Of a DNA stretch of 64,000 bases, positions 1 through 57,975 are shown in pieces (position 1 is the first letter of the stretch; each line of letters starts with the position of its first letter). This DNA is from Zygnema cylindricum (taxonomy: Eukaryota; Streptophyta; Zygnematophyceae; Zygnematales; Zygnemataceae), in contig JBBHKE010002729.1 in assembly GCA_037447655.1 (NCBI GenBank), forward strand, positions 290,858 to 354,857, in the 5' to 3' direction. The notes beneath the pieces are model-generated. The model had not been told where the DNA came from. It was given only the letters and a program-made list of their open reading frames with translations, and did no database searches. A program made the position numbers and the translations under genes.

Positions 1-943
1 CACTGAGAAATTGGAGAGGAAGCTAGAGCCATGGCTACCTAGGCTATCCTGAGGTTTACGTGGAATTTATATTAGTTAGGGTTTATTTATTTAAAAGGTA
101 TGTGCTGGCGACAGGAATTGATCCTTGTACCTACCTGCCGGCGGACAGGAAATAGCCGGTAGCCTTAGCCGTTAAGTCTAGGATTCATGTTACGTAGTAT
201 ATAGTTTGATAATTAATTAAATATGTATACGTACGATTATTTATTTAACTATAATAGATTACGTGATACATAGATCCGCTAATATATAAAGTACGGATTA
301 CGGTATGGACTAAAAATCAATACCGCGCATTTGTTTTGTAAGTGAAACAAATACCGCACATGTATTAATTACAACTACAATTAAATTAGATTTTCATCGG
401 ACGGCCGCATTAAACGCCGAGATCACGGAGGAAGATTTCGGCGGTTTGTGCCCCTCCCCACATCGGATGACGCGTGGCAAAATTACGTTGGATCGTGGAA
501 TCTCTGGAGATTATAGCACCGAATCCGGATATGACATGTGTCGACATTTAGGCCTTGTTCTACAATGTTCGTACCTAAAGTACACCGGCAGCTGTACTTT
601 TGCGTACGGAACTCAATTCTGATTGGTTCCGTACATCAGTAGATAGAGTTTGTGAGAGAGATAGGACTTAGAAAAATTAGAAGATAGGACCCCCTCTCCT
701 AGAGAGCTTCTGTACAAAAGGTCAACTTTGACCCTCCATAACTTACTGCTCAGGGGAGCAAATTCAGAGATTCTTTTTGCTATCGACTCAGGGGAGTCTT
801 GCATTCAAAGAAGTGCAGGGGTCAAGGTTTTTTGTCTACCAGGGTGGCAGTTATTTTTGCTGAAACACAAAGGGGTCAGGATTATCCTAGAGGCTTCTTG
901 GAAGCTGTCTACTCTGAGGATTTATGGAGGTCTCAGAGTTACA
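1..943 (+). repeat. Copia LTR, 5'-truncated
   Basis: This is the 3' part of an LTR of the copia family that recurs through the window. It shares the block around 'gagccatggctacct' near its left edge and the CA-rich end with the LTRs at 2589, 15386, 42714 and 43697. An ATG at 924 matches the gag start of the other copies and lies about 20 nt before the LTR end. The LTR stops in CA at 943, directly against gypsy sequence, so it is the right end of an insertion into gypsy-0. The left end is outside the window. Confidence 0.7.
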
Positions 944-2588
944 TCATAGACCCTCAATCCCTCTCTTTTGTCTTAGGCCTCGGATGTGCAGCAGGTCGAT
1001 ACGCACAAACCCATCCGTCTCTACCTGCTGGGGGGGGGATGCATCATCAATTTCTAAACACATACCTACACGATCTCCAGTCACCCTTAGAGGGACAACT
1101 TCTCATTTTTTCCTCTTTCTATCCCTTATAAAACCTTCTCCAGATGTCACAATCTACAATTTCTTAAACCCTAGCTACATGTCATGGTCCATTTCGGCAT
1201 ATACTGCAGCCCAATCAACTCCCTCTATTCATATATCAACACCTTTTCACTAGACCGCAACTTTTTCTACTCGTAGCTGGCACCATTAGACAAACTGCTT
1301 ACAGGAAACACCGGTTGTTTATTCATTAGGTCAGTCACTTATTGCATATAAACAGCTAGCTTTTGCATAAGCCATGGAAGCAATGACCATTAAAGGTTTG
1401 GAAACTCCTAAATGGAAATTTGGCTCTAATCTCTCTCAATCTGAACATAATCTAAAAAAAAAAGTGATTCTGCGAAATATCGACGCTTTTGCTTTCTCTA
1501 TGAATGATCTTGGTAGCCATACCACGTATAAAATGTTTATAGATCTGGAAGACGATCGTCCCATTTTCAAGGCGAAACATCGCTTATCTGAAACGGAATG
1601 GGAACTAGTGGACCAACGCTGCGCTGAATTGGAGGAAGTTGGCCTTATTTATCAGGTCGGATTCTACATTTGCAGCACCCACTGTCATGCCCAGGAAAAA
1701 ATATGCCGAAGGAAACTTTACCGATCGCGGGATGTGCAGCGATTACCGTGAACTTACCGTGAATTATGCTAGAACGATACAAGATCGACATCCAATTCCT
1801 TTGGCCGAAGAAATATTTGATCATGTAGGAGGTGCTAAATATTTCAGTATTTTGGATCTACAACAAGGCTTTAACAAGATTGAAATAGAGGAGAAAGATA
1901 GACATAAAACCACCTTTTTGGGTAGTGATGGTCGTTGGGAGTGGTCGGTCATGCCTTTTGGACTTAAGAACACCCCCAAAGTTTTTCAAAAAGTAATAGA
2001 TTTAGTTTTAGTTGGTTGCAAGTTTGCACGATGTTATATTGACGATTTGATTTTCGCCTCGGCCACAATTGAAGATCACGCAGCTCATATCGAATGGGTC
2101 CTAATTGAACTGAAAAAGGTTGGATTAAAATGTCATCCAACTAAATGTAGTTTTGGGTCCAAGGGTGTTTCTTACCTTGGACATTTCATTTCCTCCGAGG
2201 GGATCACACGACTTGAAGCAAAAATTGAGGATATCAACAAACTGCCAAGCCGCGTTGATCTAACGAGTCTTCGAGCCTTCTTAGGATTAGCTAATTATAA
2301 TCGCAGATTTGTCCCCCTAGTTTCAGCACTGTCGCTTCACCATTGAACAATCTACTCAAAAAAGAGGTCCCTTTTGTATGGGGTCCTTGTCAGATTTCGG
2401 TCTTTCAGAAGTTTAAAGATGCCCTCTCTAGTGCTCCCATCCTCCGACTTCCTAATCACAAATTACCATTTTTGCCTAAAAACAGACGTTGGAAAGCTTG
2501 GCATTGCGGCCATCTTTACTCAGCGTGAATTGACAAGAGAAGAATACGTGGTCGCTTACGCAATCAAAAGTAATAATCATGAGGAGTC
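944..2588 (+). pseudogene. Ty3/gypsy pol fragment (gypsy-0): methyltransferase C-terminus, RT, start of RNase H
   Basis: The fragment begins with the residues DPQSLSFVLGLG, which match the last motif of the methyltransferase domain in gypsy-1 and gypsy-2, so this copy once carried that domain too. A spacer follows, then the RT approach (FSMNDLG, LEDDRPIFK) from about 1490, and RT proper from about 1640 to 2340 with the catalytic YIDD box at 2035-2046 and the thumb motif LRAFLGLANY. RNase H begins (FTQRELTREEYVVAYA) but is cut at 2588 by a copia LTR. Frameshifts near 1660 and 2340 break the frame. It is closer to gypsy-2 than to gypsy-1 in the spacer (for example SISKHIPTRSPV versus its own remnants). 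Confidence 0.85.
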
Positions 2589-3544: not shown

Positions 3545-3860
3545 GCCGCATGGTATCGGATGCATGCGCGCACAACATTTTGCATGCGTACACGATATCG
3601 CGCACGCACGCACAATATTGTGCTCGCGCGCGCGATATTCTGCATGCGTGCACAATACGGTGCACGCACGCGCAATATTGTGTCCACGGGCACGATATCG
3701 TGCACGCGCGCGCGATATTCGGCGCGCGCGTGATTTCATTCACGCGCGCACGATATCATTCTCGCACGCACGATATTTCGGCGTGCGTGTATGATTTTCG
3801 GTCGCACGTGCGACCGCGATTTATTTATGTTTGACGTGTACGCGATTCGCGTACACGTCT
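3545..3860 (+). repeat. CpG-rich alternating purine-pyrimidine array, 20-bp period, with palindromes
   Basis: About a dozen degenerate 20-bp units have the form GCRCGCRCGCGATATYNTGC, each with a short AT palindrome (GATATC or AATATT) set in runs of CG/CA/TG. Open frames on both strands here arise only because the repeat lacks stop codons. The array ends in two perfect palindromes, GTCGCACGTGCGAC at 3801-3814 and a 27-nt inverted repeat at 3833-3859 (13-bp arms, 1-nt loop). I read it as LTR or satellite-type sequence with Z-DNA and cruciform potential, not as genes. Confidence 0.8.
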
Positions 3861-4553: not shown

Positions 4554-4755
4554 GACAGCTAGACGGTTTGGGTGTTTATTTTGTGTTGTTTGTATTTTCG
4601 GTTGGGAATGGAAGGGTGAATTTTGGCTGAATTTTGAGTTTTCCTTGTTTTTGGTTGGAATTATTTATTTTGCATCGTTGCTTTCGTACGAGATAACTCT
4701 TGTAAAGAATACGTTGAAGACCCAAGAGCCTAGTGGCTACCTTGTGGCTGAGTAT
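4554..4755 (+). repeat. Gypsy-1 terminal repeat block, 5' copy
   Basis: It matches 12887-13088 without gaps over 202 bp, beginning GACAGCTAGACGG and ending GTGGCTGAGTAT. It is the shared part of the two LTRs. The LTR does not begin with the usual TG at the edge of homology, so the true terminus is uncertain. Confidence 0.8.
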
Positions 4756-5515
4756 TCTTGTCGAAAAGAAAATGAAAATAAAAAATCTATTAAAAATATA
4801 AATTTTATTTTATAAAAAAAAAAAAAAAACATTTGTTTTTGTTTTCCGCTATTTCTTTCTTTCAATCTTTGTCTCTTATTTTGCTGCCACTGTATTTCTT
4901 GGCTTTGGTGTTGAACCTAAAGTTTGTATCGAATTTAGGGTTAATCTGCAAAATTAGGGTTAATCTGCAGAATTAGAGTTCGGAGGCAGAATTAGGGTTT
5001 TGGCTGCAAAATTAGGGTTGCACCATATTTAGGGTTTATTCCTTTTGATTCCAGTCCCTAGGTCGGTATCCTTTTATTCTTTGGCTGCAGATTTGGAGTC
5101 TTGGCCGTCTAGAATTAGGGTTTGGCTTTGGAATTAGGGTTTCCCAAGTGGAATTAGGGTTGGCTGCTGGCTTTGGATTATTGTGGTCACAAGTTTGTCT
5201 GTATATCTGGAGTTTGAGCGGCCTCTTACTTTATTCTAACACACTTCCCCTATCTATCGTATTTGTGTGTCTTATTGTTTATTTTTCTTCCACCGAACTC
5301 TTTCTTCCCTTCCTCCCATTCATCCCCTAACATTCTACGGCATACATCTTCACAGTACGGACGGGTCTTGTCGGCGGGTTATTTTGGAGACGTTGCTCGG
5401 AGGGAATTTCGTGGAGCGAATTTTATCACAGGGAGCTCTGCAAAACCCGACTTGTTTCGAACAAGTTCGGTTCACCCTTAGTGCTCACCAGAGCACTAAA
5501 GGTGTATGTAAGTAG
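4756..5515 (+). repeat. Probable remainder of gypsy-1 5' LTR, with A16 tract and TTAGGGTT motifs
   Basis: No coding frame is evident. A run of about 16 A follows TTTTATTTTAT near 4815. Between about 4935 and 5165 the motif ATTAGGGTT or close variants occurs about nine times at roughly 20-30-nt intervals. A block conserved with gypsy-2 (CGATGCCTTGCGGGTGCAGG) starts at about 5517 and marks the start of the shared internal leader, so the LTR is assumed to end just before it. Confidence 0.5.
4935..5165 (+). promoter_or_regulatory. Cluster of telobox-like motifs (AACCCTAAT on the minus strand)
   Basis: About nine copies of (A/T)TTAGGGTT are interspersed with CTGCAAAATT or GGCTTTGGAATT words. The reverse complement AACCCTAA is the plant telobox, a known binding site for telobox factors in promoters. 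Its place in a retrotransposon LTR or leader suggests a regulatory role. That role is inferred from the motif alone. Confidence 0.4.
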
Positions 5516-5997
5516 CCGATGCCTTGCGGGTGCAGGAGCGTTTTGATTTAGTGTGGACACTCGTGTAGGGGATCACTGTGGAAGGGTTCCATCGTGAACC
5601 TTTCTTATTCAGCATTTGCATTTTCTGGCTTTCCCTGCATGCTATCTGGCCCTAAGTGACCTTGGATTTTCTTGTGACTATCTGGAGTGGGATTTCTTGC
5701 TAGATCTTGCCGTGGGTGGCACTGTGTAGATCTTTTCCCGGCTGTGTTGTTTTAGATCTGCACCCTAGGGTGCCTGGATAGCAATTTTCTTGTTTTTATA
5801 GATCTGGCCCTTTGGCCTTGCCAACTGTTTGCGGGGTAGAGGTTTTGGTAAACCGGCTTCCTGCTAGATACGACCATCGGGTCTTGATAGTGACTGAGTG
5901 TGTTGACTGGACGAGTGGATTGGTTTGACACGTGTTGCATCTCGCTTAGATCGTGCCAAACATATCATTATTGTAGTCAGGGTTTTCCCCTTTGTTT
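5516..5997 (+). other. Gypsy-1 internal leader
   Basis: It begins with CGATGCCTTGCGGGTGCAGG, conserved at 52598 in gypsy-2, and shares further words with that leader (TAGATCTGGCCCTTTGGCCTTGCC, cited here only as a region near 5803). No canonical TGG-starting primer-binding site is seen at its left end; the conserved block may be where priming occurs. The gag start follows at 5998. Confidence 0.5.
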
Positions 5998-7788
5998 ATG
6001 CCCATAGATTGGGATAACCTTCATTATTTATCCGGGTCCACCCGAGGAGGTACACTGTATTGTCCTCCACAGATAAAACCTTCGGATTTTCCTGAATCGT
6101 GGACCACATCCGATCCGATTACGGATCGGAGATCGCCGTTAGTGCGGTCTGGTCTCATATCTACGTCGTCTCTGTCCTCGGTTTCATCTAGGTCACAACT
6201 AGAGGGGACCAAAGAAGACTTCCTAGAGGAAACCTTTCCTACTCCTCACACTCGTAGGTCCTCTACCAGCCCAGCTTTGGCACAACCAGCCCATCCTTCC
6301 CTTTACGACATGGCTTCCTCTTTAGAGGGATCCATAAGAAGGATGCAATTATGCTTTTCCGGATTAAAGGACACCATGTCCTTGTCGCATTTCCGTATGT
6401 TATACGATACGGAAATGAGGGATTTAGCATTTAGATATTAGGATAGGTTTGACCTTCGTGTCGCTTTTTCCCTTCTCGGTCGATACCTTCGTGGTACGAC
6501 ACTCACACTCTACACTCGCAAGTACGAGGATGTGTTTGCGATGACAGAGTACGTGGCTCCCTTTGGGAGGTTACCAGAAGTCTTAGGCCAAGTGGATATC
6601 CCATATCAGGCACCAAGACCAGCGGTATTAGATGCCAATGGGGACGAGTTGTATCCAGCTATCTCCGAAATTCCTCGTCGGTATGCAGTGGCTGCCCGAG
6701 CGGCGGTCTCGGCTAGAGCGGGGGGCACCATTCCGTTACGTGACCCTCTCTCAGTCATGTTTGACATACTCCAAGAGGAGTACCGGATGCAAAACCCGGA
6801 TCAGATCAAAGAGTTAATGAACTTCGAGCGTAGGCCAGTTGAAACTGCCCCTGCCTTGCGAGCTCGGATGGAAACTCTGCGGGAAGCATTACCGGACCTC
6901 ATGTCCGATGCGGAGGCTGTCCAAAAATTTGTGGGACAGTTTCCAGGTCCATCAAAGAGGTTTATCCAAAACCACCTCAGTCAGATGTATGGACTGAAAT
7001 TCACCTTTGAGCAAGCGGCTCAATACGCGGTAGAGTATGAGATGCAGACATCGTGGTGGGACGCCCATGAGCGTTCCAAACCTCCTCACAGAGAACCGGT
7101 CAATCCATCTCCTCCTCCACCTAAAAACCCATGGCCTCCTAATAGGCCCCAGAAGAAGCCGGCCATGGGAACTCCACCCGTTGGTCCCGGAAACCGAATG
7201 TGTTTCCGATGTGGAAAAACCGGGCACGATGCCCGCATGTGTCCAGACAAGGCGGCCACTTGTACTCATTGCCACCAAAAGGGACATTATGTCCATCGGT
7301 GCCACATCAAGGACCCTAATTTCACCTATCAAAATCAGATAAAGAACGGTGGAATTCCGGCCCGTTCCGCGAAACCAGTCACTCCGTCTAAGGAGACCGA
7401 GAAAGAGGAAGCTCCCCCTAAGGTCTCTCGTAGAGAGAGAGAAAAGGCCGAGCTACAAGTCACAATGGCGGCCATGATGAAAGAGCAATTCGCAGCTTTC
7501 ATGGCGGAAATGAAACCCCAGTTTACTGGGATGGCTAGGACCGTTGTCCACATGCCGTCGTTGGCCGGGCGAACCCTTCGGGATTCCACCGTTCAACAAC
7601 GGGTTGCCACATTTGAAAAGGGCTCAGTAGACCATAACCGAGTGGGCAAATTAAAAAATTATCGTGTCCCACTCTCATTTGGAAAAGAGCCTTTGCCTTC
7701 CCTACCGGACATAGTTCATACCATCGCGGCAGAGGCACTGACCATATTGGATGGCACTATTAATGATGCTCATCGGGTAAAGGATCGA
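5998..7788 (+). pseudogene. Gypsy-1 gag (capsid and nucleocapsid), interrupted
   Basis: The ATG at 5998 (MPIDWDNL) is chosen because gypsy-2 has the matching MPTDWENL at 53083. A TAG at 6439-6441 splits the frame after LAFRY where gypsy-2 reads Q. The capsid-like part continues through FSLLGRYL and a conserved stretch around RMETLREALPDLMSDAE. Two CCHC zinc knuckles follow, CFRCGKTGHDARMC and CTHCHQKGHYVHRC, at about 7201-7300, typical of nucleocapsid. A basic or glutamate-rich linker leads into the protease. TAA at 7789 replaces a leucine codon present in gypsy-2. Apart from these two stops the frame is well preserved. Confidence 0.88.
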
Positions 7789-9620
7789 TAAAGTATTCTT
7801 TCCGCAATGTTGGACAATGTACCGAAAGCCCTTCCCCTCGTTGATGAGGTCGCAGCAGCAGCCGCTTTGAGGGCTCTGCAGTTGAACCGCAGTCTCTCGG
7901 CGGTTCAACCCGTGACTACGGAAGAGCGTCGTAATCTCGATCCCCATATCAGTTTCCTTGATAACTCACGGGGATCATTCTTGGTGAATGGTGTTCACCC
8001 CACTCTTCCTCTTATGGACACCGGGGCCAAACCCGTGATCCTCGGATCCGGATTTGCGCTCAAGCTTTATTTATGTTGATTATTCCATGAAACCCTAAAT
8101 GTTGTTTGTTGCGTCTGTGTACGTATATGGAGGATGCATTTCATATGATTGTTCGTCGACCTATTTTTGCTTAGCTTCTTGCATGATAGTTTGGGTCGCT
8201 TCTGCGGTCTATTTTAGACCAAAGAACAACAGTAACGACTATGAGTGTTTGGTGGGTCAAGACGTTATATTCCGAATTGGCGGTGGTGTGGACATGCACG
8301 ACCAAACATTTTCTTACCGACCAACACACTTTCCGGAGCGCAAAATATGCCTCCCTCTCATTTCAGCCCGCCGACCTTTGCCCTCTATGGCCCACTCGGC
8401 TACGACTCTTCCCGCATTTTTGGGGAACTCCGTTGGAGAGGAAATTTTCCACTCTCTTTCGGCCGAAGAAATTATACCGGATAGTTCTCCCTTACCCGAG
8501 ATCTTTGCGGAACCGGGTTTTTTAATTAATTCTCACACCTTTGACAATATTTATAAGTCCGCATTATCTATTCCATTAACGACCATCCCTCCTATACCGA
8601 CGGTTGCAACCGATCCTTCGGGTTTCCTTCCAATCAGTTGGAAGCCCGTACAGCTGAGTCCTCATACGGACGGGGTCGTTATTCTAGACCTATTTGCTGG
8701 GATCGGAACTTCACTATTGTCATGTTTACGGAATGGTCTCCTCATCCGTCACTACTACGCCGTAGAAATTGATGCATTAGCTAGAAAAGCACAACTGCAC
8801 CACTGTAATCTCCTGCATTCACAGTATCCACACTTGTTTCCAAAGTCAACCTTTCTACACATGCACACTGCTCTGCCACAAGACATCCGCATCCTTAGTA
8901 ATCATCATCTTCGGGATGTCGAACCGATAGACCTTGTTTTTGGAGGGTGGGAGTGTCAAGGCATGTCTCGGGCCGGCAAAGGTCTTGGTTTGGCGGATCC
9001 CCGTACCAAATTGTTTTTTCAGCTTTTGAGGGTCCTTCATTTTCTTCAAACCACGGCGAAGCCTGTCGGATACATTTTAGAGAACGTCGCTGCTTATAAT
9101 GATCCTCGGCCAACAATTTTGGACGACTATAAGCGCATAGAACACCTTATCGGACCCTTACTAATTATTGATGCCGCTCGGCATGGGTCCTTGGCACATC
9201 GCGTTCGCTCCAAATGGACGAACCTAATCGTTGTTGGTCGTCTTCATGAGGCTAATTTGTTGGTACGACCTCCCACTATAGATATTACGAACGCTTTGCT
9301 TCCCTTCCACCAAGTCCAATCATGTGTCCAATATGACTACCCTCCAAATTACAACATTAATGCACCGAGCCACCCCCTCAAGGTCCTTCCTACTTTAGTG
9401 TCTTACCCTAATTCCCATGCGTACTCCTATAACGGTCCAGGCATGCTCCGGAATAATGTCACTGGAGAGTTAGAGGAGCCTACGGCCACAGAACAGGAGC
9501 ATCCAGGCACTACTGCGGCCCCCGGCCTTACATATAGATAGCGTTGCACTTTGTTGGGTAGGGTCATGGATCCTCAATCTTTATCATTTGTCTTAGGTAT
9601 AGGCCTTGCAGCTGGTCGCT
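7789..9620 (+). pseudogene. Gypsy-1 protease plus DNMT3-type cytosine-5 methyltransferase domain
   Basis: The protease motif LMDTGAKPVILG lies near 8010-8045. The next stretch, about 8063-8236, has no similarity to gypsy-2 and carries stops. The frame resumes at VGQDVIFRIGG. From about 8670 a C5-methyltransferase fold appears in canonical order: motif I LDLFAGIGTSLL (8681-8715), motif II around YYAVEID, motif IV GGWECQGMSRAGKG (about 8944-8985) with the catalytic-position Cys, LADPRTKLFF, motif VI ILENVAAY (about 9073-9096), SLAHRVRSKW (like the AHRAR segment of DNMT3), and motif X RCTLLGRVMDPQSLSF across a TAG at 9539. I infer S-adenosylmethionine-dependent DNA cytosine methylation. The usual PC dipeptide is EC here, so activity is uncertain. 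Confidence 0.85.
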
Positions 9621-11360
9621 ACGCACAAAATCACCCCGTGCAACGAGCTGGGGGGGGGAATACGGCGGCTCCTTCACGTCTTGTTTCCTCTCGCACCTCT
9701 CCTAGTTTTAAGGGAAATCCATTTCAGTTTTTTCTCTTCCCTTCTCTCACACCGGCGGTTAAGGACATCTCCATCTATGATTTCCTCAACCCCAGTCATA
9801 TGTCTTGGGAAATCCCGGCCTATACAGCTGTTCAATCCACAATTTCATCATTTTCTGGTCCGCCACCGCACTGGACAACTGCATTTCTGACGCGTAGCTG
9901 GCACCATTGGGTGGACTGCTTACAGCAAACTCTAGTAAAATACGAGTTAGGCCACTCACTCATCGCCGATGAGCAAATTGCACATGCTCAGGCCATGGAA
10001 GCTTTCACCATTAAGAGTCCCGAGACGCCCTAGTGGAAGTTCGGTTCCAGTCTCACAAAGGCAGAACATGCACTATTAAGTGACACAGTCACCTGTCATA
10101 TAGATGCGTTTGCTTTCTCCATGAATGACCTTGGACGTCATTCTACTTACAAAATGTCAATCGACCTTGAAGACGATCGACCTATCTTTAAGCCGAAACA
10201 CCGTCTCTCTGAAATGGAATGGGAGATGGTGGACAAAAGATGCGCACAATTGGAAGAAGTCGGTCTAATCTATCGGTCAGATTCCACCTTTGCCGCCCCC
10301 ACAGTCATGCCTAGGAAGAAAGATTCCGACGGAAATTTTACTGAGCGAAGAATGTGTGGGGACTATTGAGAGCTCAATGCTCGGACCGTTCAAGACCGCC
10401 ACCCTATGCCTCTAGCGAAGGAAATATTTGACCATGTAGGTGATGCAAAGTTCTTTAGCATTCTTGACTTGCGTCAAGGGTTTAACCAGATTGAAATAGA
10501 GGAAAGAGATCGGCATAAAACTGCATTTTGGGGCAGTGATGGTCGGTGGGAATGGGCAGTCATGCCTTTCGGTCTTAAGAACGCACCCGCCGTGTTTCAA
10601 AAAGTCATGGATTTGGTGCTGGGTGGATGTAAATTTGCCCGGTGCTACATCGATGACTTGATAATCGCATCCGCCACGGTTGAGGAGCACGCCTTCCATA
10701 TTGAGTGGGTTCTCACCGAGTTAAAGAAAGTCGGGCTGAAGTGTCACCCAGCCAAGTGTACTTTCGGTGCGGAGGGAGTGCCTTATCTCGGTGATTTTTT
10801 TTCGGCTGAGGGCATCACCCCCTTGGAAGCTAAGGTAGAGGCGATCACCAAACTGCCGCCCCCCACGGATCTCACGAGTCTGAGGGCTTTTCTCGGACTA
10901 GCCAATTATTACCGTCGGTTTGTACTAAGTTTTAGTACGATTGCTTCTCCCCTCAATGACCTTCTCAAAAAAGAAATGCCTTTTGTTTGGGGACCCGCCC
11001 AAGTAGAAGCGTTTCAAAAACTGAAAACCGCCCTCTCGAGCGCTCCCATTCTTCGACCTCCTAATCACAAGCTTCCCTTTTGCCTACAAACCGATTTCGG
11101 GAAGCCAGGCATTGCGGCTATTTTAACGCAAAGAGAGTTGAATGGAGAAGAATACGTAGTGGCATACGCTAGCTGGAGCAATAACCGAGCTGAATCTAAT
11201 TACAGTCGTTACGAGGGTGAATGTCTCGCCGCGGTATGGGGTATTGTTCATTTTCGACATTATCTTTACGGCAAGCCATTCACGCTCCTAACTGACCATC
11301 AACCCCTTCATTGGTTGATGACCAACGATAAGCTTTCAGGGAAGCTTGCCCGATAGGCTT
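9621..11360 (+). pseudogene. Gypsy-1 reverse transcriptase and RNase H
   Basis: A spacer (YDFLNPSHMSW) connects the methyltransferase to RT. RT covers about 10110-10930 with the fingers motif FAAPTVMPRKK, palm LDLRQGFNQI, FGLKNAPAVFQ, the catalytic YIDD box near 10645, and LRAFLGLANYYRRF. RNase H follows with TDFGKPGIAA, YEGECLAAVWG and TDHQPLHW. Stops are TAG at 10031 (Lys in gypsy-0), TGA at 10367 (Arg in gypsy-2), TAG at 11354 and TAA six bases later. The RT active site itself is intact. Confidence 0.92.
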
Positions 11361-12895
11361 AAATTTTACAAGAGTACGACGTTGAGATCATCCATCGGCC
11401 CGGTTTGTTAAGCTTGAACGCCGACGGGATTTCTCGGAATCCACTACCCTGGACCACCGATAACGGTGTTCGGCAAGATTTCGACGAGGACGAGGTACCG
11501 GCCATGTCGGCTGGTTCCTATATCACTTACTGTCTTTCTTCTATTCCTCATCCTCGGCCGGCCACGGATCCGTGGCGCGACGGCCCATTAATCCTCTTCC
11601 TCTCCTCTCAAACCTTTCGGTCCAGTACAACCGCCGAGGAAGAAGACAGAGTAAAGAAACGAGCCAAAAACTATCTATGGCTCGGCGGATCTTTAGTTCG
11701 ATTGTTGGCGGACAGCAGTCATCGGCATGTCCCCCGGCCAACCGAGCGCTTGTCTTTGATTGAGCAAATACATACCGAGCTTGGCCATTACGGGACCAAG
11801 CGTACTTTGAGCCTTGTACGGGCACGCTATTGGTGGTCCGGAATGCAAGCGGATGTGGCGGCCATTCTCCACAAATGCGCCACATGCGACCGGTTACGCA
11901 CCTCTTTCTCTAATCGGCAGGTGTTTCTACAGCCATTGCCCATCAGAGGATTGTTTTATCGCTGGTCCGTGGATCTCGCCGGACCGTTTCCCTTATCTCG
12001 AAAAGGGAAACAATACATCATGATAATGATTGAAAATTTTAGCAAATGGGTAGAGGTGGTCGCTCTTCCCCACAAGACCGCTAAATTGACCACTGCTGCT
12101 TTTAAAGAGCACGTCCTCATGCGTTATGGAGCTCCTGCGGAGGTTCTAAAGGACGAGGGTACGGAGTTCCGCGGGGAATTTCAAGAGATGTTGCATGAAG
12201 CTTTAATTGATCATCGCCGGACGAGTCGTGATCATCCACAAGCCGATGGCTTGGCGGAACGAGCAGTCCAAACTTTCAAGCGGGCCCTCCGAAAGCATTG
12301 TTTGGAGAAACACATCTCCGTCTGGGACAAATCCTTGGGCTATATCACTATGGGATACCGGATGTCCGTACAAGCTAGCTTGGCTAATTTCAGCCCGTAC
12401 TATATTCTCTTCGGTCGAGCACCCTTGCTCGGTCGGAATATTCACAAAGCACCAAGTTTACCTTTGCCTCTAATGTCTGAGACCATATTCTTGGAAGAAC
12501 TAACTCGCCGTGCTTTGCTTTTCGCTCGTGAGATGCCCATGGCTTTTGATAATTTGCAGATTGCCCAACATCGGGATACTTTGCGTTTCGCCACCACGCG
12601 AAGTGGCAGTTACAAGCCTCAACAGAAATCTTACCAAGTCGGGGATTACGTGTACCTTCGACGACAATCTTTCGACACTTTGGACACTGATGTTTCACCA
12701 CACATTCTTTGTGTGGTGGAAATGGATGCTAATAGGATGTTGGGTTTGCAGGGTGCGGATACAAGGATAATTCGAGAGCATTCGAAGAACTATGCACCTT
12801 GTTACTTACCGGATTTGTCACAGAATATGGATTCGATGAGAATGCCAATCACAGAGGCGACGGAATGTACTATTTGCAGGCGAGCAGACAGCTAG
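11361..12895 (+). pseudogene. Gypsy-1 integrase (nearly intact)
   Basis: The frame is open from 11405 to 12895. The HHCC zinc-binding region reads HTELGHYGTKRTL then CATC (about 11772-11890). The catalytic core has the DDE triad in WSVDLAGPF, LKDEGTEFRG and DGLAERAVQTF (about 11965-12270). A C-terminal region follows (VGDYVYLRR), ending in a conserved-looking Cys pair (CTIC) just before the stop. Typical gypsy integrases continue the RT-RNase H frame. Here two stops upstream separate them, so this part would not be made as a normal polyprotein. Confidence 0.9.
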
Positions 12896-13088
12896 ACGGT
12901 TTGGGTGTTTGTTTTGTGTTGTTTGTATTTTCGGTTGGGAATGGAAGGGTGAATTTTGGCTGAATTTTGAGTTTTCCTTGTTTTTGGTTGGAATTATTTA
13001 TTTTGCTTCGTTGCTTTCGTACGAGATAACTCTTGTAAAGAATACGTTGAAGACCCAAGAGCCTAGTGGCTACCTTGTGGCTGAGTAT
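12887..13088 (+). repeat. Gypsy-1 terminal repeat block, 3' copy (truncated LTR)
   Basis: It matches 4554-4755 over its full 202 bp. The integrase stop lies inside it. Homology ends at 13088 against unrelated sequence, so the rest of the 3' LTR has been lost. Confidence 0.8.
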
Positions 13089-27043: not shown

Positions 27044-28354
27044 TGTTGTCTATAGCCATTTTCAGCCATGGATTTACCCTCGGAAGCACCACAGACTACC
27101 CAAAAACAGCCTACTTTGAATCAACACAGAATTCTACAGAAATAACAAGACAACCTGAAAATACAATCACAAATATTTTCTAGGCTATAGAATAACCTTA
27201 CAAAGTTTCAGACAAAAATAATATAGAGAGTGATCACATCATCTAGTCAAAGTTGCAGAAAAACAGTCTGCCAGAACTTTGATAAAACCGGCCAACTTCA
27301 CAATGAAGTAAAACACAGACCAGAATTACAATAGACCTGAAAATCTGTGGAAATGTAAAAAATACAAGGAGAAACATACATGCAAAATTTCACATAATTT
27401 TGCCTGCAGATCTGAGAGCAATCCTCAGATAAAATTTCCAAAAATCACCATAAACAGTTTTGGTCCAGAAAAGTTCCTAAGACTAAAAATGACTAAGTCC
27501 TACAAATATACACGAGCTCATTACTGAGTGTACGGAGGCATACCAGCCGTACGCAATCTACTAGCTACCTCTATTAATGTTAGTATACCGGAATACTTCG
27601 AGGTATGTCAAAATGAGTAAATCTACATTAATAACTAATACATTTAAAGACAAACCATTGTTGTAAATATTTACAAAGTACACACAATCTTACAAAATCG
27701 TATGCTCAGTCATGCCGAGTCACTCAATGGAACACTTCGAATTTCGTCAAACAATCCAAGACGTCCAAAATAAACATCGTGTGATTGACGCGATTTCGCG
27801 TCCCCACTACTTGAAAAATATCGGCGGCCTATATCCGCCGTCCGTCGATCTTATTCGGCACCCTTGATGTCGCGCCACGTGGTCACAAAAATCTAAACGA
27901 AATCCACGCGAGTCGTCAAATATCCCACGACGTCGCGAAGCGAATTCAGTCATTCACGTCCACTTGTTAAAATAATAATCGTACAACCGAAGTCTTTTCC
28001 GTACCGCAACCACGTCCTTTGCAATAAATGCGGCAAATAAAGTACACTTCATTTGTCATAAACGTCGCTTGTTGCATATAAATTACATTTGTTCAAATTA
28101 TATGTTCCGTACCGGCGACGTACATTTCGTAAACTTCTCATCGGATCGCGTCGCGATCCGCCGTCCATTTCTTAACGCATTCCGCGCCACTCAATTACTA
28201 CCTCACGTTCCTTTAATTTTACTCGTACATTTACTCCCCCAATTCGCAAATCCATTCGAACAACCACATTACTTTCGATAATATATTACGCACGCGAAAC
28301 GTCGCGTACGCACAAAATGTCGAGTACGCACGAAACCAACATTTCAAAAACAAT
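27044..28354. mobile_element. 1.3-kb LTR-like insert in copia E RT
   Basis: It begins TGTTGTCTATAGCC and interrupts the RT frame between TRLD and IPAAVG, the conserved TR-DIA-AVG region. Flanking pentamers are GTCTG (27039-27043) and GTCCA (28355-28359), a decayed target-site duplication. The first 550 bp resemble 51725-52300, the proposed 5' LTR of gypsy-2. No coding region lies inside, so a solo LTR is likely. Orientation is not certain, because the far end (minus-strand TGTTGGTTTCGTGCG) also looks like an LTR start. Confidence 0.65.
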
Positions 28355-31300: not shown

Positions 31301-31882
31301 ATTGTACGCTACCGCTGATTTTCCACCATTTAATACTATCTGAGTTGCCTCTTCCTCTAGAATGTAAGCTTCAGCTACAGCTATATTCCATCTAGCCTCC
31401 TCCGACCTTTTTAATTGTTCTGCGGCTCCTTTATATTCAGTAAATAACCTTCTCATTAGAAACATAACTTGATAATAGGGAGAAAAATTCACCCCGGAAC
31501 ATGCAATTTCAGACAACAAAAGCTTCAAGCCATTACAATAGGAGTTCATATCACCCCGGAATAGATATAATCCCAAATTTTCGCAGCAGTTATAACCTCA
31601 TTCTGCTCACTAACTAGGACATAAGACTCCAACAATGCGTTCCATATATCAGATGCTTTAAAGATATCGATATATGTCATGTTCAAATCTTCGAACAATA
31701 GTAATTTAAGAACATGCAAAGAATCTTCATTTTTCTTTTCAAAATTTTGATATGCATCCGGAAAAACACCAGAAATCACATCATACAATCTCACTTGCTT
31801 AAGGTAAGACTTAAACAAATCTGCCCAATATAAATATTTTTGGCTATTAAACACCGGGATGCGTGAGGGTGGGCCCGTAACA
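28355..31882 (-). pseudogene. Copia E gag, protease, integrase and RT
   Basis: Gag begins just after the primer-binding site, whose minus-strand sequence TGTTACGGGCCCACC reads VTGPPSR in the gag frame. The core LYWADLFKSYL is at about 31830, and the zinc knuckle CVYCFGQGHVFQLC near 31195. The protease motif is degraded to WIMASGCASH near 30940. The integrase core has SDNGEEY and PYTPEQN near 30130-30060. RT has [29 protein letters not shown] and the catalytic YVDD at about 28735. Frameshifts separate the parts, and RT stops at 28355 where the LTR-like insert lies. Confidence 0.88.
31867..31882 (-). other. Copia E primer-binding site (half initiator tRNA-Met type)
   Basis: Minus strand TGTTACGGGCCCACCC follows the LTR end directly. 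It differs at one position from the GTTATGGGCCCACC seen in the plus-strand copia elements. Confidence 0.65.
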
Positions 31883-36479: not shown

Positions 36480-37138
36480 ACGAATACCTTAATAGCAAGT
36501 AAGTTTAGAGTGACATAACCGAATTACATATGGTGTGATTGATAATAAATACCAATTAGGGGGGAATTCAAACATCAAATTGAAATTTGGCAATCATTGA
36601 AGCCGACCATCTTTGTCTTTCACACCAAAATGGTGAGGTAAGAAAAAATCAAAATCAATATAAAGATTAAAAAAAATATGGATTGGTAAAATTGATATAA
36701 AATAATCAGAACCTGGAATTAAAATTGATATTGTAATTGAAATGCCACTTAAAAAATGAAAAATGTAACAAAAGGTAATATTTGTAAAAAGAAATAACCT
36801 ACTAAAGTTTATCATGTAATTTGGAAATCAACCTTCAAATTTTATTTTGAAATTAGAGTAAATTTTTATTTCACTTTTGAAAGTGAGGATGCAACTAAAT
36901 ATACAAAGGTAAAATTGGTGAATTGAAAAACAAATGGGGACTAAAATAAAGCATTGAAGGGTGGGAATTGTTTTCTAGGATGACACCAAAACAAGAAAAA
37001 AGATACGTGTCATTGATGATTCAAAATGTTACATTTGCATTGATGACGATCTTACAAATGATTTTGAGAACCTTATTGCCTCCTATATTTTACAAGCATC
37101 ACGACCACCAATTGGTTTAAACTGCTATTGCTAAGGTT
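36480..37138. other. AT-rich sequence upstream of the transposase; no gene seen
   Basis: Only short frames occur. It contains TTAGGGGGGAATTC at 36557, which resembles a Harbinger-type end, but I found no partner. Confidence 0.4.
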
Positions 37139-51724: not shown

Positions 51725-52594
51725 TGTTGTCCATAGCCTATTTCAGCCATGGATTACTCAAGGAAAACACCCACAGACTACCCCAAAACAGTTGTGTTTA
51801 AGACAACATAGATTACTCCACAATATATAAAAGCACCTCAAACTGCTCCAGTATGTAGAATGTACTCAACACTATAACCTCCCAAAGGTAGAGCCTGATC
51901 CACAAATGAATTTAAAAGATATGAGCTCCAAAGTTTCCTAAAAACTTCTGACAGCTTATCAAACAAACCAAGTAAATCTCTCACACAATTCTACAAAAAC
52001 AGCAGAACAAAATGAAACTACACAACCATATAGTTTCTATATCCTAAAACATCCACACAAAGTTTCATATCAAGATATCAATCAGAGTGATCACACTGAC
52101 AGGTCAAAGATGCAAAAAAACAGTCTGCCATTACTTTGATAAACTCAGCTGATACTAAAAAATAAATTAAGTCCTACATTTTATGCTTACATAGCTATCT
52201 ACTGAGCCTTGCACTAATCAAGGTACTACACCTGTAACTAAGTACTGTACCCTAATAAAATCACTGTACGTCAACGGTACGTCTACTCTACCGGAAGTAC
52301 GTCCATAACCCTAATTGTAACTTTTATCATATTTCAACAATGTAACACTAAAAACTAGATAACTACATACAAATTAATGTTGTTTCAGATATTTACAGAT
52401 AGTGGCCGTACATACATTGTGCCGCTTGCTTGGTAAGCAATTGGCGAATCTGTCCAAATTACTGTAACCGTCCGTACTAGTCAATTCTGAATTCACGGAT
52501 CGTCGTAAGATGTAAAGTAAATCTTCGTGATGGACGACACGCGTCTGTTCACCCTTGGCAATCACTTGATCGCTAAGAGTGGTTTGTAAGTTCA
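51725..52594 (+). repeat. Proposed gypsy-2 5' LTR
   Basis: The first 550 bp resemble the LTR-like insert at 27044 (GTGATCACA, AACAGTCTGCCA and ACTTTGATAAA words). It is assigned to gypsy-2 because it lies between the copia break and the leader block conserved with gypsy-1 (52598). It ends near TAAGTTCA. The assignment is tentative. Confidence 0.55.
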
Positions 52595-53082
52595 CGATGC
52601 CTTGCGGGTGCAGGCGCGTTTCAGGATAGTTGTTGATCGTTTAGAGGCTACGTGAGTGGATTGGGTTCACCTGGACCTAATTGTATTGAGCATTTGCACT
52701 GTCCACGCTTTCTATGCTTGCCATCTGGCCGTGAGTGGCCTTGTGTTTTTCTTGTTGTCTGTTTGGCGTGGAATTTTATTGTTAGATCTGGCCGTTGGTG
52801 GCCTTGGATAGAACTATTTTCTGCCTGTGGAGCTTTAGATCTGCACCTCCGGGTGTTTGTTTAGCAAGTTTCTGCCTTTATAGATCTGGCCCTTTGGCCT
52901 TGCCCACTCGTTTGCAGGGTAGAGGTTTCGGTAAAAGCGGCCTCTTGACTAGATCTGGCCATCGTGGCCTTGTTAGAGACTGTTTGAGATTGTTGCTTAT
53001 GTATGTGGTATGGTTTAGCATTTGTTACACCTCGTATAGGGCGTATCCATTAGCAAATTAGCTTGTTATCTCAGTCATTTTT
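52595..53082 (+). other. Gypsy-2 internal leader
   Basis: It begins with the block CGATGCCTTGCGGGTGCAGG shared with gypsy-1 at 5517 and ends at the conserved gag ATG at 53083. No long frame is present. Confidence 0.6.
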
Positions 53083-54830
53083 ATGCCCACTGATTGGGAG
53101 AATCTTGACCACTCATACTGATCTACACGTAGTGGTGGAACTTTCCGTTCATCAAATTTTGATCAATTGAATTTATCAAATTTGGTTCCTTTAACGTTAA
53201 GTCCTTTAATCAAATCTAGAGCGTCTTCTACTCGTTCAGATTTAACCACTCTCTCATCTTTGTCATCCATTATTTCCACGCTATTTGTGGAAGAGGTTGA
53301 TAACCAAAGGGAACCCTATTTAGATTTTCTTTCTTTTTGGTCTCCGTTAGCACCGATTCAGGCTTTGAATTTGACTAACTCGTCTCTTTTGATGGCCTCC
53401 ACATCGGAGGGTACTCTTGGTAAAATTCAATTATGCTTTTCCGGAATGAAAGATACCATGAGTTTATCTCATTTTCGAAAGCTATTCAACACCGAAATGC
53501 GAGATCTAGCTTTCCGTTATCAAGATTGATTTGACATGCGTGTCGTTTTCTCCCTTCTCGGGCGTTACCTTCACGGGTTCGCCCTTACTTTATATTCCCG
53601 CTTGTATGATGGCATACTTGCGATGACCGAATATTCTCCACAGTTTGCTGGAATGCCTGAGGTAATAGGTCAAGCAGAAATCCCTTATCAAGCTGTTATT
53701 CTCGAGGTCTTAGATGCGCTTGGCAATGTTCTTTGCCCAGCTGTGGCGGAGGTTCCCCAACAATATGCTATTGCAGCCCAAGCCGCCGTCCCGGCACGAC
53801 CCGGGATGACTATTCCGTTACGAGACCCTCTCATCATAATGTTTAATTTGTTACAAGAGGAGTACCGCATGCAAAATCTTGACCAAGTTAAAAAATTAAT
53901 GAATTTTGAGCGTAAACCGAGCGAAACTGCCCCCGCTTTACGAGCTCGCATGGAGACCTTACGGGAAGCATTACCCGATCTGATATCAGATGCCGAAGCT
54001 GTCCAGAAGTTTGTTGGACAGTTTCCTTTCCAGTCAAATAAATTTATTCAAAGCCATCTTACCCAAACATACGGTCTCCAATTTACGTTTGAACATGCAG
54101 CTCGATACGCTGTAGAATACGAGATGACGAATTGTTGGTGGGAGGCCCACAATCGACCAAAAGCCCCTCAAAGAGAACCTAACCCTTTCAATTCACCAAA
54201 TCCTCGTAACTTGGGGCCGAATAATCGGCCACCAAGGGTCCCAGCTATGGGAACCCCACCAAATTAACCATCTAATCGGATTTGTTTCCGATGTGGCAAG
54301 ACCGGGCATGATGCTCGGATGTGCCCGGATAGATCTGCGACCTGTACACAGTGCAAACAGACTGGCCACTTTGTGTATCGTTGTCACATCAAAAACCCTG
54401 AATTTTCATATCAAAATCAGATTCGAAATGGTGGCATACCGGCTAGATCTGCCAAAATAGTCCAACCTGTTAAAGAGTCAGAGAAAAACTCTCCACCTAA
54501 AGTGTCTCGGAGAGAAAAAGAGAGAGAGGAAATGCAAACTCAAATGGCCGCTATGATCAAAGACCAATTTGCAGCCTTTATGGCTCAAATGAAACCGCCT
54601 ACTCACCTAACTGGTATGGCTCGTACAGTTGTCCATCTTCCCACGCTAGCAGGTCGAGTTTTACGAGATTCAACCATTCAAAAGCGGGCAACCACGTTTG
54701 ACAAGGGGACAGTTGATCACAATCGCAAGGGTAAACAGTCTAGCACACGTCTACCATTATCATTTTCCAAAGAAACCGCGACCAATTTGCCCGAAACAGC
54801 TTCCACCATCACGGCGGAAGCACTCACTAT
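53083..54830 (+). pseudogene. Gypsy-2 gag
   Basis: The start MPTDWENL matches gypsy-1. The capsid-like region includes IQLCFSGMKDTMSLSHFRK and AVQKFVGQFP. Two CCHC knuckles, CFRCGKTGHDARMC and CTQCKQTGHFVYRC, lie near 54283-54380. Stops occur at about 53125, 53527 (TGA) and 54265 (TAA, just before the first knuckle). From 54319 the frame is open for 631 codons through protease and into the methyltransferase, showing that gag and pol are one continuous frame in this family. Confidence 0.88.
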
Positions 54831-56960
54831 TCTTGACCGCTCCATTCAAGACAGCCATAGGGTTAAGGAAAGATTATGCATTTTGTCTACTATGATTTCC
54901 GATTCACCCAACCTAAAATCTACGGTGACATCCATCCCATTTGCAGCATTACTGGCTTTACAAATGAACCGTAATTTTGATGCTCTTAGGCCTATCTCTA
55001 CCGACGAGCGCAATTTACTTGACCCACACATCAATTTTTTAGATAATGGGAAGGGTGCATTTTCAGTCAATGGTGTCCTACCGTCATTACCACTTATGGA
55101 CACGAGTGCAAAACCAGTTATTTTGGGGTCATCTTTTGCACTGAAACTAGGTCTGACAGCTGATAAACTTCAGTCCACTTCCACACGTTTAGTCACCTCA
55201 GCGGGAACAACCGAACCAGTTTTGGGCATTACGAAGGATCCACCCTGTTTTAGGTTTCAAAATGGTACAGAATCTGATTTTGCGGAAGTTCGTGTACACG
55301 CATTGGTCACCAAATGTAGTGATTACGTGTGTTTAGTAGGGCAAGATGTGATTTTCAGAGTAGGAGGCGACGTTGATATGTACGATCAGACTTTTTCCTA
55401 CCGTCCTACCAATTATCCGGAAAAGAAAATTTGTCTCCCTCTAATTTCAGCACGCCAATCCATGCCCATTATGGCTCACGCAGCCCAATCTGTCCCTGCT
55501 TATTCCGGTAATTCGGTAGGATTTGAAATTTTTCATTATCTTTCCGCAGAGGAAATTCTGCCCGATAGTCCTTCTTTGCCTGAAATTTTTGATAATCTAG
55601 GTTTTGTTATCGATTCTCACGAGTTCGATCACATCTACAAACACACAATTCAGATTCCTTTATCGCGGGTTCCACCTCTGCCTCTTATTTCTATAGATCT
55701 TTCTGGATTTTTTCCCATTAATTGGAAACCAATTCAGGTAAAACCTCATCAAGATGGTCTAGTCATTTTAGACCTATTCGCAGGCATAGGTACCTCTCTA
55801 CTCTCATGCCTTCGCAACGAATTACCTATCAAGCACTACTACTCAGTTGACACTGACCCTTTAGCTCGGAAAGCCCAAACACATCACTCTAATCTTTTAC
55901 ACGGACAATATCCACATCTTTTCCCTAAATCTGCCTTTGCTCACATGCATACAGCACTACCTCAAGATATTCGTTTGATAGGAAACCAACACCTTCTCGA
56001 TGTGGAACCAATCGATCTTCTCTTTGCCGGTTGGGAGTGTCAGGAATGTCGGTTGGGAGTGTCAGGAATGTCACGAGCAGGCAAAGGTCTCGGCTTAGCT
56101 GATCCCCGCACAAAATTATTCTTTGAATTACTTCGTATCAAGCATTTTTTGCAATCTTTCGATCGCCCATTGGGATCTATTCTGGAAAACGTGGCAGCCT
56201 ATGACGATCCTTGACCTACAGTGTTAGCTGATTACAAGCAGATAGAAGCATTAATTGGTCCTCCACTTATCATTGATGCCGCTTGTCACAGGTCGTTAGC
56301 TCATCGGGTTCGATCTAAATGGACCAACTTGATTGATATTGGACGCCTTAGAGAAGGAAATCTTTTTGTCAAACCTCCTTTTACAGATATTCAGACTGCA
56401 CTTCTTCCTTTTCACAAAGTCCAAACCTCTTCCTTTTCACAAAGTCCAAACCTGTCTGCAGCCTGATCACCCACCGAATTACAACATTAACGTCTCAGGC
56501 CAACCACTCAAAGTTCTCCCCACGGGTTCGATCTAAATGGACCAACTTGATTGATATTGGACGCCTTAGAGAAGGAAATATTTTTGTCAAACCTCCTTTT
56601 ACAGATATTCATACTGCACTTCTTCCTTTTCACAAAGTCCAAACCTGTCTGCAGCCTGATCACCCACCGAATTACAACATTAACGTCTCAGGCCAACCAC
56701 TCAAAGTTCTCCCCACTCCAAAGTTCTCCCCACTCCAGTGTCTTATCCACACTCTCACGCTTTCTCTGGTGATGGGCCCGGCCTGCTCAGAAATATTCAC
56801 ACAGGCGGCCTAGATGAACGTAGAGCCATAGAACGAGAACACCTTATGCATTTCCTTCCCAACACTACGGCTGCCCATGGTCTCACAGAACGACAGCGCT
56901 GCATCCTTTTAGGTCGTGTCATGGACCCTCAATCCCTCTCATTTGTCTTAGGCATCTGAT
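54831..56960 (+). pseudogene. Gypsy-2 protease plus DNMT3-type cytosine-5 methyltransferase domain
   Basis: The protease motif is LMDTSAKPVILG near 55093 (Ser in place of the Gly of DTG). The protease to methyltransferase linker is intact here, unlike gypsy-1. Methyltransferase motifs are I LDLFAGIGTSLL (about 55768), YYSVDTDPLARKA, motif IV AGWECQ (about 56024-56042) followed by a 7-residue insertion and SGMSRAGKG, LADPRTKLFFELL, motif VI ILENVAAY (about 56179), then TGA at 56212, SLAHRVRSKW, and motif X RCILLGRVMDPQSLSF (about 56895-56950). Several tandem duplications lie between 56029 and 56730. Catalytic-position Cys and ENV Glu are present. PC is again EC. Confidence 0.86.
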
Positions 56961-57975
56961 TTGCAACAGGTCGTTACGCACAAACCCATCCGTCTCAACC
57001 AGCTCAGGGGGGGGAATGCATCATCAATTTCTAAACACATACCTACACGATCTCCGGTCACCCTTAGGGGGACACCTTCTCAATTTCCCCTCTTTCCATC
57101 CCCTATAAAACCTTCTCTAGATGTCACAATCTACGATTTCTTGAACCCTAGCCACATGTCATGGTCCATTCCGGCATATACTGCTGCCCAATCTGCTCCC
57201 TCTAGTCGTATGTCAACACCTCCTCACAGGACTCCTTTCTTACTCGCAGGTGGCACCATTGGACAAACTGCTTACAGGAAACACCGGTTGGTTACTCATT
57301 AGGTCAGTCACTTATCGCGGATGAACAGCTAGCTTTTTCACAAGCCATGGAAGCAATGACGATTAAAGGTTCGGAATCTCCTAAATGGAAATTTGGCTCT
57401 AATCTCTCTCAATCTGAACATGATCTACTGAACGAAGCGATTCTCTAGAATATCGACGCTTTTGCTTTCTCTATGAATGATCTTGGTCGCCATACCACCT
57501 ATAAAATGTCTATAGATCCGTAAGACGATCGTCCCATTTTCAAGCTGAAACACCGCTTATCTGAAACGGAATGGGAATTAGTGGATCAACGCTGCGCTGA
57601 ATTAGAGGAAGCTGGCCTTATTTATCGGTCGGATTCTACTTTTGCCGCACCCACTGTCATGCCCAGAAAAAAAGATGCCGAAGGAAACTTTACTGATCGC
57701 AGGATGTGCGGCGATTACCGTGAACTCAATGCTAGAACGATACAAGATCGACATCCAATGCCATTGGCCGAAGAAATATTTGATCATGTAGGAGGCGCTA
57801 AATATTTCAGTATTCTGGATTTACGACAAGGCTTTAACCAGATTGAAATAGAGGAGAAGGATAGGCATAAAACCGCCTTTTGGGGTAGTGATGGTCGTTA
57901 GGAGTGGTGTGTCATGCCTTTTGGACTTAAGAACGCCCCCGCAGTTTTTCAAAAAGTAATGGATTCAGTTTTAGG
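56961..57975 (+). pseudogene. Gypsy-2 spacer and N-terminal RT, truncated
   Basis: The spacer includes YDFLNPSHMSW. RT begins FSMNDLGRHTTYKM near 57470 and covers FAAPTVMPRKKDAEGNF, LDLRQGFNQIEI and FGLKNAPAVFQKVM. A TAG at 57899 replaces the Trp of the GRWEW motif. The copy ends before the YIDD box. Its sequence is closer to gypsy-0 than to gypsy-1 (for example GNFTDRRMCGDY and SISKHIPTRSPV). Confidence 0.9.

What the first reader, a model, noticed from the sequence alone, without database searches (positions are those of the whole stretch)
7789..9620. Ty3/gypsy retrotransposon with a DNMT3-type cytosine methyltransferase between protease and RT
Seen: motif I LDLFAGIGTSLL, motif IV ECQGMSRAGKG, motif VI LENVAAY, an AHRVR segment and motif X LLGRVMDPQSL occur in that order inside a gag-pol frame, downstream of the protease DTG and upstream of RT. 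Gypsy-2 has the same layout in one 631-codon frame, and gypsy-0 keeps the motif X remnant, so the domain belongs to the family and is not a chance capture in one copy. Known: C5-methyltransferases use these motifs, and the AHRAR and LLGRSW-like segments are features of DNMT3. Retrotransposon-borne DNMTs have been reported, from memory, in a charophyte and in dinoflagellates. Inferred: the element may methylate its own DNA or its target, perhaps to tune host silencing.
Basis: partly seen in the sequence, partly recalled or inferred. Interest (0 to 1): 0.93.

Follow-up and report, generated by a model that had tools for sequence, protein, structure and literature searches.

The report
Retrotransposons carrying a DNA-methylating enzyme domain
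Copies of a jumping gene carry, between their protease and reverse transcriptase, a domain built like the enzymes that put methyl marks on DNA; it belongs to a larger family with an unusual change beside the catalytic residue, and may let the element mark its own DNA.

Summary
A Ty3/gypsy element (4554-13088, LTR pair 99% identical) encodes a C5-cytosine methyltransferase domain between protease and RT (PF00145, E 2.2e-11). A diverged second copy (about 52.5-58.0 kb) has the same layout; a third keeps motif X and RT. AlphaFold models (pLDDT 86-87) match DNMT3A/B best.

(1) The domain belongs to a clade of about 70 database proteins, nearly all without organism name, two from the alga Closterium; several are fused to a retroviral-type protease or RT. 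(2) The proline before the catalytic cysteine is mostly replaced: of 58 family rows covering it, Glu 41, Gln 9, Pro 7, Lys 1; Pro in 44 of 44 other relatives. Catalytic Cys, Glu and Arg are nearly always kept, and the two window copies show purifying selection.

The principle is published (KnitGypsy-Dnmt3 of Klebsormidium, PMC5890265), so: a new variant of a known kind. 'DNMT3-type' fits the fold; ancestry is open. Most likely it methylates the element's own cDNA; that is inferred. Host and genome-wide copy number remain unknown, because the genome search did not complete.

The parts
4554..13088 (+). gypsy-1: Ty3/gypsy retrotransposon, 8535 bp, LTR to LTR
   Evidence: direct-repeat pair; domains
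4554..4755 (+). 5' LTR of gypsy-1 (202 nt); no TG...CA ends and no clear target-site duplication seen by eye
   Evidence: 99% identical to 12887-13088; ends printed
12887..13088 (+). 3' LTR of gypsy-1
6442..7788 (+). gag frame with two CCHC zinc knuckles (7201-7242, 7261-7302)
   Evidence: zf-CCHC E 0.0028, below Pfam cut-off
7807..8079 (+). aspartic protease remnant, MDTG at 8014-8046
   Evidence: no Pfam hit for this short piece; gypsy-2 counterpart matches Asp_protease_2 with E 0.014, below cut-off
8600..9538 (+). C5-cytosine methyltransferase domain, motifs I-VIII and target-recognition part, ECQ in motif IV (8942-8983)
   Evidence: PF00145 E 2.2e-11 for ORF 8099-9538; DNMT3A E 1.6e-8; model pLDDT 86.6 matching DNMT3A
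9542..9640 (+). motif X segment of the methyltransferase (LLGRVMDPQSL 9551-9583), after an in-frame stop
10370..11353 (+). reverse transcriptase and RNase H
   Evidence: RVT_1, RT_RNaseH; best PDB match Ty3 RT 4ol8, E 1.8e-64
11363..12892 (+). integrase (H2C2 zinc-binding and rve core); no chromodomain hit
52544..57974 (+). gypsy-2: second, diverged and truncated copy of the family
   Evidence: similarity to gypsy-1 and gypsy-0
54268..56211 (+). gypsy-2 frame: zinc knuckles, protease (DTS) and methyltransferase motifs I-VI (ECQ followed by 7 extra residues)
56221..56941 (+). gypsy-2: broken rest of the methyltransferase, AHRVRSKWTNL 56299-56331, tandem duplication, motif X about 56909-56941
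940..2561 (+). gypsy-0: third copy, motif X remnant (949-978) followed by RT
   Evidence: 944-2011 is 89% identical to 56919-57974; RVT_1 E 1.2e-23

Best explanation
The element is a Ty3/gypsy retrotransposon whose polyprotein includes a C5-cytosine methyltransferase of DNMT3 fold between protease and reverse transcriptase. Shown: the domain, its position, its predicted fold, its conservation in a wider retroelement clade, purifying selection between the two window copies, and retention of the catalytic Cys, Glu and Arg with a clade-typical Pro-to-Glu change in motif IV. Inferred: the domain is carried into the particle as part of the gag-pro(-pol) polyprotein, is cut out or kept next to RT, and methylates cytosines of the newly made cDNA (or RNA:DNA hybrid) de novo before or at integration. 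A pre-marked copy would look like ordinary methylated host repeat DNA, avoiding harsher responses to naked foreign DNA and limiting damage to the host.
For: PF00145 hits. DNMT3A/B best by sequence and by fold. Position between protease and RT in both window copies and in relatives: of 10 relatives scanned, RVT_1 follows PF00145 in P0012 and P0023; the gag-asp protease is above Pfam cut-off in P0110, P0112 and P0113 and below cut-off in P0010, P0013 and P0015. Of the family rows covering each site: Cys 57 of 58, motif VI Glu 54 of 55, motif VIII first Arg 52 of 53. Between gypsy-1 and gypsy-2, motifs I-VI keep 76% amino-acid identity over 168 codons (dN 0.184) while synonymous sites are saturated (102.7 of 122.1 differ); after motif VI 68% over 77 codons (dN/dS 0.13); gag dN 0.22-0.23. 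Precedent: SymbioDIRS-Dnmt3 domains methylate CG de novo in yeast (PMC5890265).
Against: Pro before the catalytic Cys is present in 44 of 44 non-family relatives, so its replacement may weaken or change catalysis. The KnitGypsy-Dnmt3 domain showed no activity in yeast, which its authors call inconclusive. The gypsy copies show no methylation-like footprint beyond that of methyltransferase-free repeats. The segment around motif X is less conserved (52% over 79 codons). No expression, cDNA or methylation data. The window copies are decayed.
Confidence: 0.5

Rival explanations
1. The domain is an inactive or nearly inactive methyltransferase kept as a nucleic-acid-binding or assembly module, in the way DNMT3L helps DNMT3A. 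The Pro-to-Glu change would be the mark of lost or reduced catalysis.
For: Pro replaced by Glu, Gln or Lys in 51 of 58 rows; motif VI Asn replaced by Met (6) or His (2) in 8 of 55 rows, both Closterium proteins included; in one row (P0046) the motif VI Glu is lost too.
Against: The catalytic Cys, motif VI Glu and motif VIII Arg are retained in 57 of 58, 54 of 55 and 52 of 53 rows; motif I Phe and Gly in 46 of 46. An idle enzyme usually loses these first (recalled: DNMT3L has lost catalytic residues).
Confidence: 0.2
2. The enzyme methylates RNA (the element's genomic RNA, or the RNA strand of the RNA:DNA hybrid), for packaging, stability or escape from host RNA surveillance.
For: Its place in gag-pro upstream of RT would put it in the particle with genomic RNA. 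A C5-methyltransferase fold can act on RNA (DNMT2, recalled). The authors of PMC5890265 raise RNA methylation for SymbioLINE.
Against: Closest in fold to DNMT3, whose members methylate DNA. No DNMT2 was in the trees, so a link to it is untested.
Confidence: 0.15
3. The domain acts in trans on host chromatin at or near the target site, steering integration or host silencing.
For: C-to-T differences between gypsy-0 and gypsy-2 are more frequent at CG (20 of 81) than at CHH (33 of 317.5), so these repeats were probably methylated.
Against: The same tendency is seen in four repeat pairs without the domain, so host enzymes suffice; nothing points to trans action.
Confidence: 0.1
4. Chance capture in one copy, assembly chimera or a spurious motif match.
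For: Window copies are decayed.
Against: Two copies with the domain and one with its remnant in one window, about 70 relatives elsewhere, several with the same layout, and a confident predicted fold.
Confidence: 0.01

Closest known systems
KnitGypsy-Dnmt3 of Klebsormidium nitens (de Mendoza et al. 2018, PMC5890265; abstract, introduction, results, discussion and start of the methods read; passages)
   Same: LTR Gypsy element of a green alga with a Dnmt3-related methyltransferase in the Pol polyprotein, purifying selection on the domain.
   Different: The main text gives no motif sequence, so motif IV cannot be compared; its supplement was not available. Its repeats are described as DIRS-like, while gypsy-1 shows one plain direct-repeat pair.
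SymbioDIRS-Dnmt3 and SymbioLINE-Dnmt of Symbiodinium (same paper)
   Same: Retroelement-borne C5-methyltransferases, the first with shown CG activity in yeast.
   Different: DIRS and LINE elements, not Ty3/gypsy; described as independent acquisitions.
Animal DNMT3A/DNMT3B catalytic domain
   Same: Best fold and PDB sequence match, linear motif order, AHRxR segment.
   Different: PCN instead of ECQ; separate branch in the trees; no PWWP or ADD domain seen in the element.
Phage cytosine methyltransferases (PHROG 116/363; e.g. Cellulophaga phi18:3, Vibrio 1.275.O)
   Same: Same supergroup in the trees; phrog_116 E 3e-17.
   Different: Pro in motif IV and no His before the motif VIII Arg in the six examined.
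Ty3 (Saccharomyces) retrotransposon
   Same: RT/RNase H best PDB match, 4ol8, E 1.8e-64.
   Different: Ty3 lacks a methyltransferase (recalled).

Membership tests
Ty3/gypsy LTR retrotransposon | RT and RNase H followed by integrase, RT most like Ty3 | tested here: met
Ty3/gypsy LTR retrotransposon | LTR pair | tested here: met
   4554-4755 and 12887-13088, 99% identical
Ty3/gypsy LTR retrotransposon | TG...CA LTR ends and target-site duplication | tested here: inconclusive
   read by eye; not seen at the repeat borders, which may be misplaced
C5-cytosine methyltransferase (PF00145) | Rossmann methyltransferase core | tested here: met
   PF00145; models and PDB matches
C5-cytosine methyltransferase (PF00145) | catalytic Cys, motif VI Glu, motif VIII Arg | tested here: met
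   present in gypsy-1; 57 of 58, 54 of 55, 52 of 53 family rows
C5-cytosine methyltransferase (PF00145) | Pro before the catalytic Cys (PC motif) | tested here: not met
   Glu in both window copies; Pro in 7 of 58 family rows, 44 of 44 other relatives
DNMT3 | fold closest to DNMT3 | tested here: met
DNMT3 | clade with DNMT3 to the exclusion of phage and bacterial enzymes | tested here: inconclusive
   not recovered; not rejected, p-AU 0.321; only two vertebrate DNMT3B sequences as references
DNMT3 | PCN motif IV | tested here: not met
   ECQ in both window copies
DNMT3 | de novo methyltransferase activity | not testable with these tools
   needs an assay
KnitGypsy-Dnmt3 | homology to the Klebsormidium element | not tested
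   its sequence was not obtainable here; no Klebsormidium name
KnitGypsy-Dnmt3 | DIRS-like repeat arrangement | tested here: not met
   only one direct-repeat pair found in gypsy-1

The most novel reading that the evidence does not exclude
One ancient capture of a DNMT3/phage-like methyltransferase founded a retrotransposon-specific enzyme family, passed on with gypsy elements through green algae (Closterium, perhaps the window host) and other unnamed eukaryotes. Its Pro-to-Glu catalytic-loop change retuned it to a new substrate, such as the RNA:DNA hybrid or single-stranded cDNA inside the particle: a self-marking retroelement.
Probability: 0.2. Interest if true: 0.85.

Novelty: new variant of a known kind. 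Interest (0 to 1): 0.57.

Why it matters
Silencing enzymes are usually the host's weapon against transposons. An element lineage that keeps its own methyltransferase under purifying selection turns this round. Precedents exist in Klebsormidium and Symbiodinium, but here the domain marks a whole retroelement clade with a shared, unusual catalytic loop. That makes two questions testable: why a retrotransposon should methylate itself, and whether a C5-methyltransferase works with Glu in place of the PC proline.

Tried and rejected
Origin from phage, virus or prokaryote: phage tblastn gave 230 records, none covering 80% of the query; the six fetched carry Pro in motif IV. Two IMG/VR scans and one GTDB scan matched patterns at 37, 31 and 35 places, and none was confirmed as a relative by tblastn. 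These scans are pattern-limited, so absence is weak evidence.

Element-specific methylation footprint: C-to-T differences are commoner at CG than at CHH in gypsy-0/gypsy-2 (0.247 against 0.104), but four other repeat pairs show the same tendency (0.076/0.034, 0.303/0.198, 0.415/0.245, 0.607/0.373) and gypsy-1/gypsy-2 RT shows none (0.252 against 0.273). A six-frame scan of the window with the family profile matched only gypsy-1 and gypsy-2, so those four pairs carry no recognisable copy of the domain. CpG observed/expected is 0.78-0.89 in the gypsy copies, within the 0.35-0.95 of seven other stretches. So no special footprint.

Programmed frameshift between protease and methyltransferase in gypsy-1: rejected, because gypsy-2 has them in one frame.

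Host identity: no tRNA, no Rfam hit; an aquaporin fragment looks to me like a plant SIP aquaporin (recalled, not tested). Host left open. Genome-wide copy number: not obtained.

Literature: nine searches listed no report of an ECQ motif IV or of this family beyond PMC5890265 and its mention in PMC12344493 (passages; it names LTR Copia and DIRS, not Gypsy). One search asked for ECQ itself with motif IV and found no paper. The library holds open-licence papers only; of the listings I opened four papers. Passages seen in PMC8226279 and PMC6453930 held nothing on it.

Full report
Observation. ORF lists and motif positions confirm the finding. In gypsy-1 the order is gag with two zinc knuckles (7201-7302), protease MDTG (8014), methyltransferase motifs I (8684), IV (8942), VI (9077), AHRVR (9194) and X (9551), RT/RNase H (10370-11353) and integrase (11363-12892), inside a 202-nt direct-repeat pair 99% identical (4554-4755, 12887-13088). 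PF00145 hits with E 2.2e-11 in gypsy-1 and 1.5e-5 in gypsy-2. The RT is closest to Ty3 RT among solved structures (E 1.8e-64). The copies are decayed: gypsy-1 has a frame change between protease and methyltransferase and several in-frame stops; gypsy-2 has a DTS protease, an insert in the catalytic loop, a stop and a tandem duplication; of the domain gypsy-0 keeps only motif X. A six-frame scan of the window with the family profile matched gypsy-1 and gypsy-2 only.

The wider family. A single-sequence search gave 9 hits. An alignment search gave 105 at E <= 0.001, the 7992 candidates sharing most words being scored. I count 64 of the 105 as family (P0001-P0003, P0010-P0069, P0071) and leave out 41 ordinary PF00145 proteins. 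P0071 (E 2.7e-8) is weaker than the excluded P0070 (9.6e-10); I kept it because it carries the protease-like part and motif I of the family. A third search (P0012, residues 150-520) gave 11 hits, 6 of them new (P0109-P0114). Two of the 70 bear an organism name, both Closterium (P0023, P0032); many are fragments. Of 10 proteins scanned with Pfam, P0012 and P0023 have RVT_1 after the methyltransferase; P0110, P0112 and P0113 have the retroviral-type protease above cut-off, P0010, P0013 and P0015 below it; P0001, P0012, P0023 and P0030 gave no protease hit; PF00145 was below cut-off in P0030 and not reported in P0113. Most clusters hold one to three sequences, some 9-23, which may reflect repeated copies.

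The catalytic loop. On a profile alignment of the 70 proteins plus two window copies, 58 of 72 rows cover the residue before the Cys: Glu 41, Gln 9, Pro 7, Lys 1. Cys 57 of 58, the next Gln 56 of 57, motif VI Glu 54 of 55 (the next residue Asn 47, Met 6, His 2), motif VIII Arg 52 of 53. In 44 of 44 non-family relatives the residue is Pro, as in both DNMT3B sequences and the six phage enzymes. On the 52-row tree the residue needs at least three changes (its own column left in the tree). I read them as Pro to Glu, Glu to Gln and one return to Pro; the direction rests on the rooting.

Ancestry. Two trees were built from part of the set: with 30 of the 64 family proteins then known, two window copies, 16 of the 44 others, six phage enzymes and two DNMT3B (56 rows, LG+G4); after dropping nine long-branched, short or redundant rows, gypsy-2 among them, and adding five (52 rows, mixture model). 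Both recover the retroelement rows as one clade (100/99 and 98/98), beside phage enzymes plus DNMT3B (92/88 and 92/73). Holding retroelement and DNMT3 rows together costs 2.26 log units (p-AU 0.321). So 'DNMT3-like' is fair and 'descended from DNMT3' is open. Only two vertebrate DNMT3B sequences were at hand, both lacking part of the target-recognition region.

Selection and age. Gypsy-1 and gypsy-2 keep 76% identity in motifs I-VI over 168 codons with synonymous sites saturated, 68% after motif VI (77 codons) and 52% in the stretch from motif X on (79 codons); two RT pieces keep 86% and 92%, gag 68-70%, protease 59%. The two lineages are old, and the domain was under purifying selection before these copies decayed. 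RT identity of gypsy-1 to Closterium P0023 and to P0012 is 53-54%.

Mechanism. The layout puts the enzyme in the gag-pro(-pol) precursor, hence probably in the particle. With catalytic residues kept, the simplest reading is de novo methylation of the element's own cDNA. This is inference. SymbioDIRS-Dnmt3 domains methylate CG in yeast, while the KnitGypsy domain gave no activity, which its authors call inconclusive (PMC5890265). The clade-typical Pro-to-Glu change warns that substrate or rate may differ. C-to-T excess at CG occurs between gypsy-0 and gypsy-2 but equally in repeats without the domain, so nothing in the window shows self-methylation.

Novelty. Retrotransposon-borne C5-methyltransferases, including one in a charophyte Gypsy element, are published. 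New here, as far as nine searches of an open-licence library show, are the breadth of the clade, its presence in Closterium and this host, and the conserved ECQ. I file it as a new variant of a known kind.

Noticed in passing
window 56305-56716: Tandem duplication of about 218 nt inside the methyltransferase part of gypsy-2 (124-nt stretches 98% alike).
   Followed up: partly
window 56026-56088: Seven extra residues in gypsy-2 directly after ECQ in the catalytic loop; this copy's enzyme is probably dead.
   Followed up: partly
P0030, P0033, P0037, P0039, P0046, P0057 and Closterium P0023, P0032: Family members whose motif VI Asn is Met or His (8 of 55 rows); the catalytic Glu before it stays except in P0046, which has Lys (sequences).
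   Followed up: partly
window 3561-3778: Tandem array of about 20-nt units of alternating purine and pyrimidine, palindromic and CpG-rich.
   Followed up: no
window 60547-61005, - strand: Aquaporin (MIP, E 7.7e-8) exon-like piece resembling plant SIP aquaporins (recalled); the only host-gene trace I found in the frames scanned.
   Followed up: partly
window 28347-31884 (-), 34198-35491, 45324-49010: Decayed Copia-type elements (RVT_2 and SH3_retrovirus hits, weak rve); CpG observed/expected 0.35-0.70.
   Followed up: partly
window pairs 13281-14239/16303-17262 and 43696-44627/49026-49943: Repeat copies differ by C-to-T at CHG as often as at CG, which would fit plant-type CG plus CHG methylation in the host.
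   Followed up: partly
window 62319-63114: Diverged tandem repeats around a 66-nt unit.
   Followed up: no
window 37454-38444: Run of N, an assembly gap, just after a frame at 37121-37440 that looks transposase-like to me (recalled; no Pfam hit).
   Followed up: no
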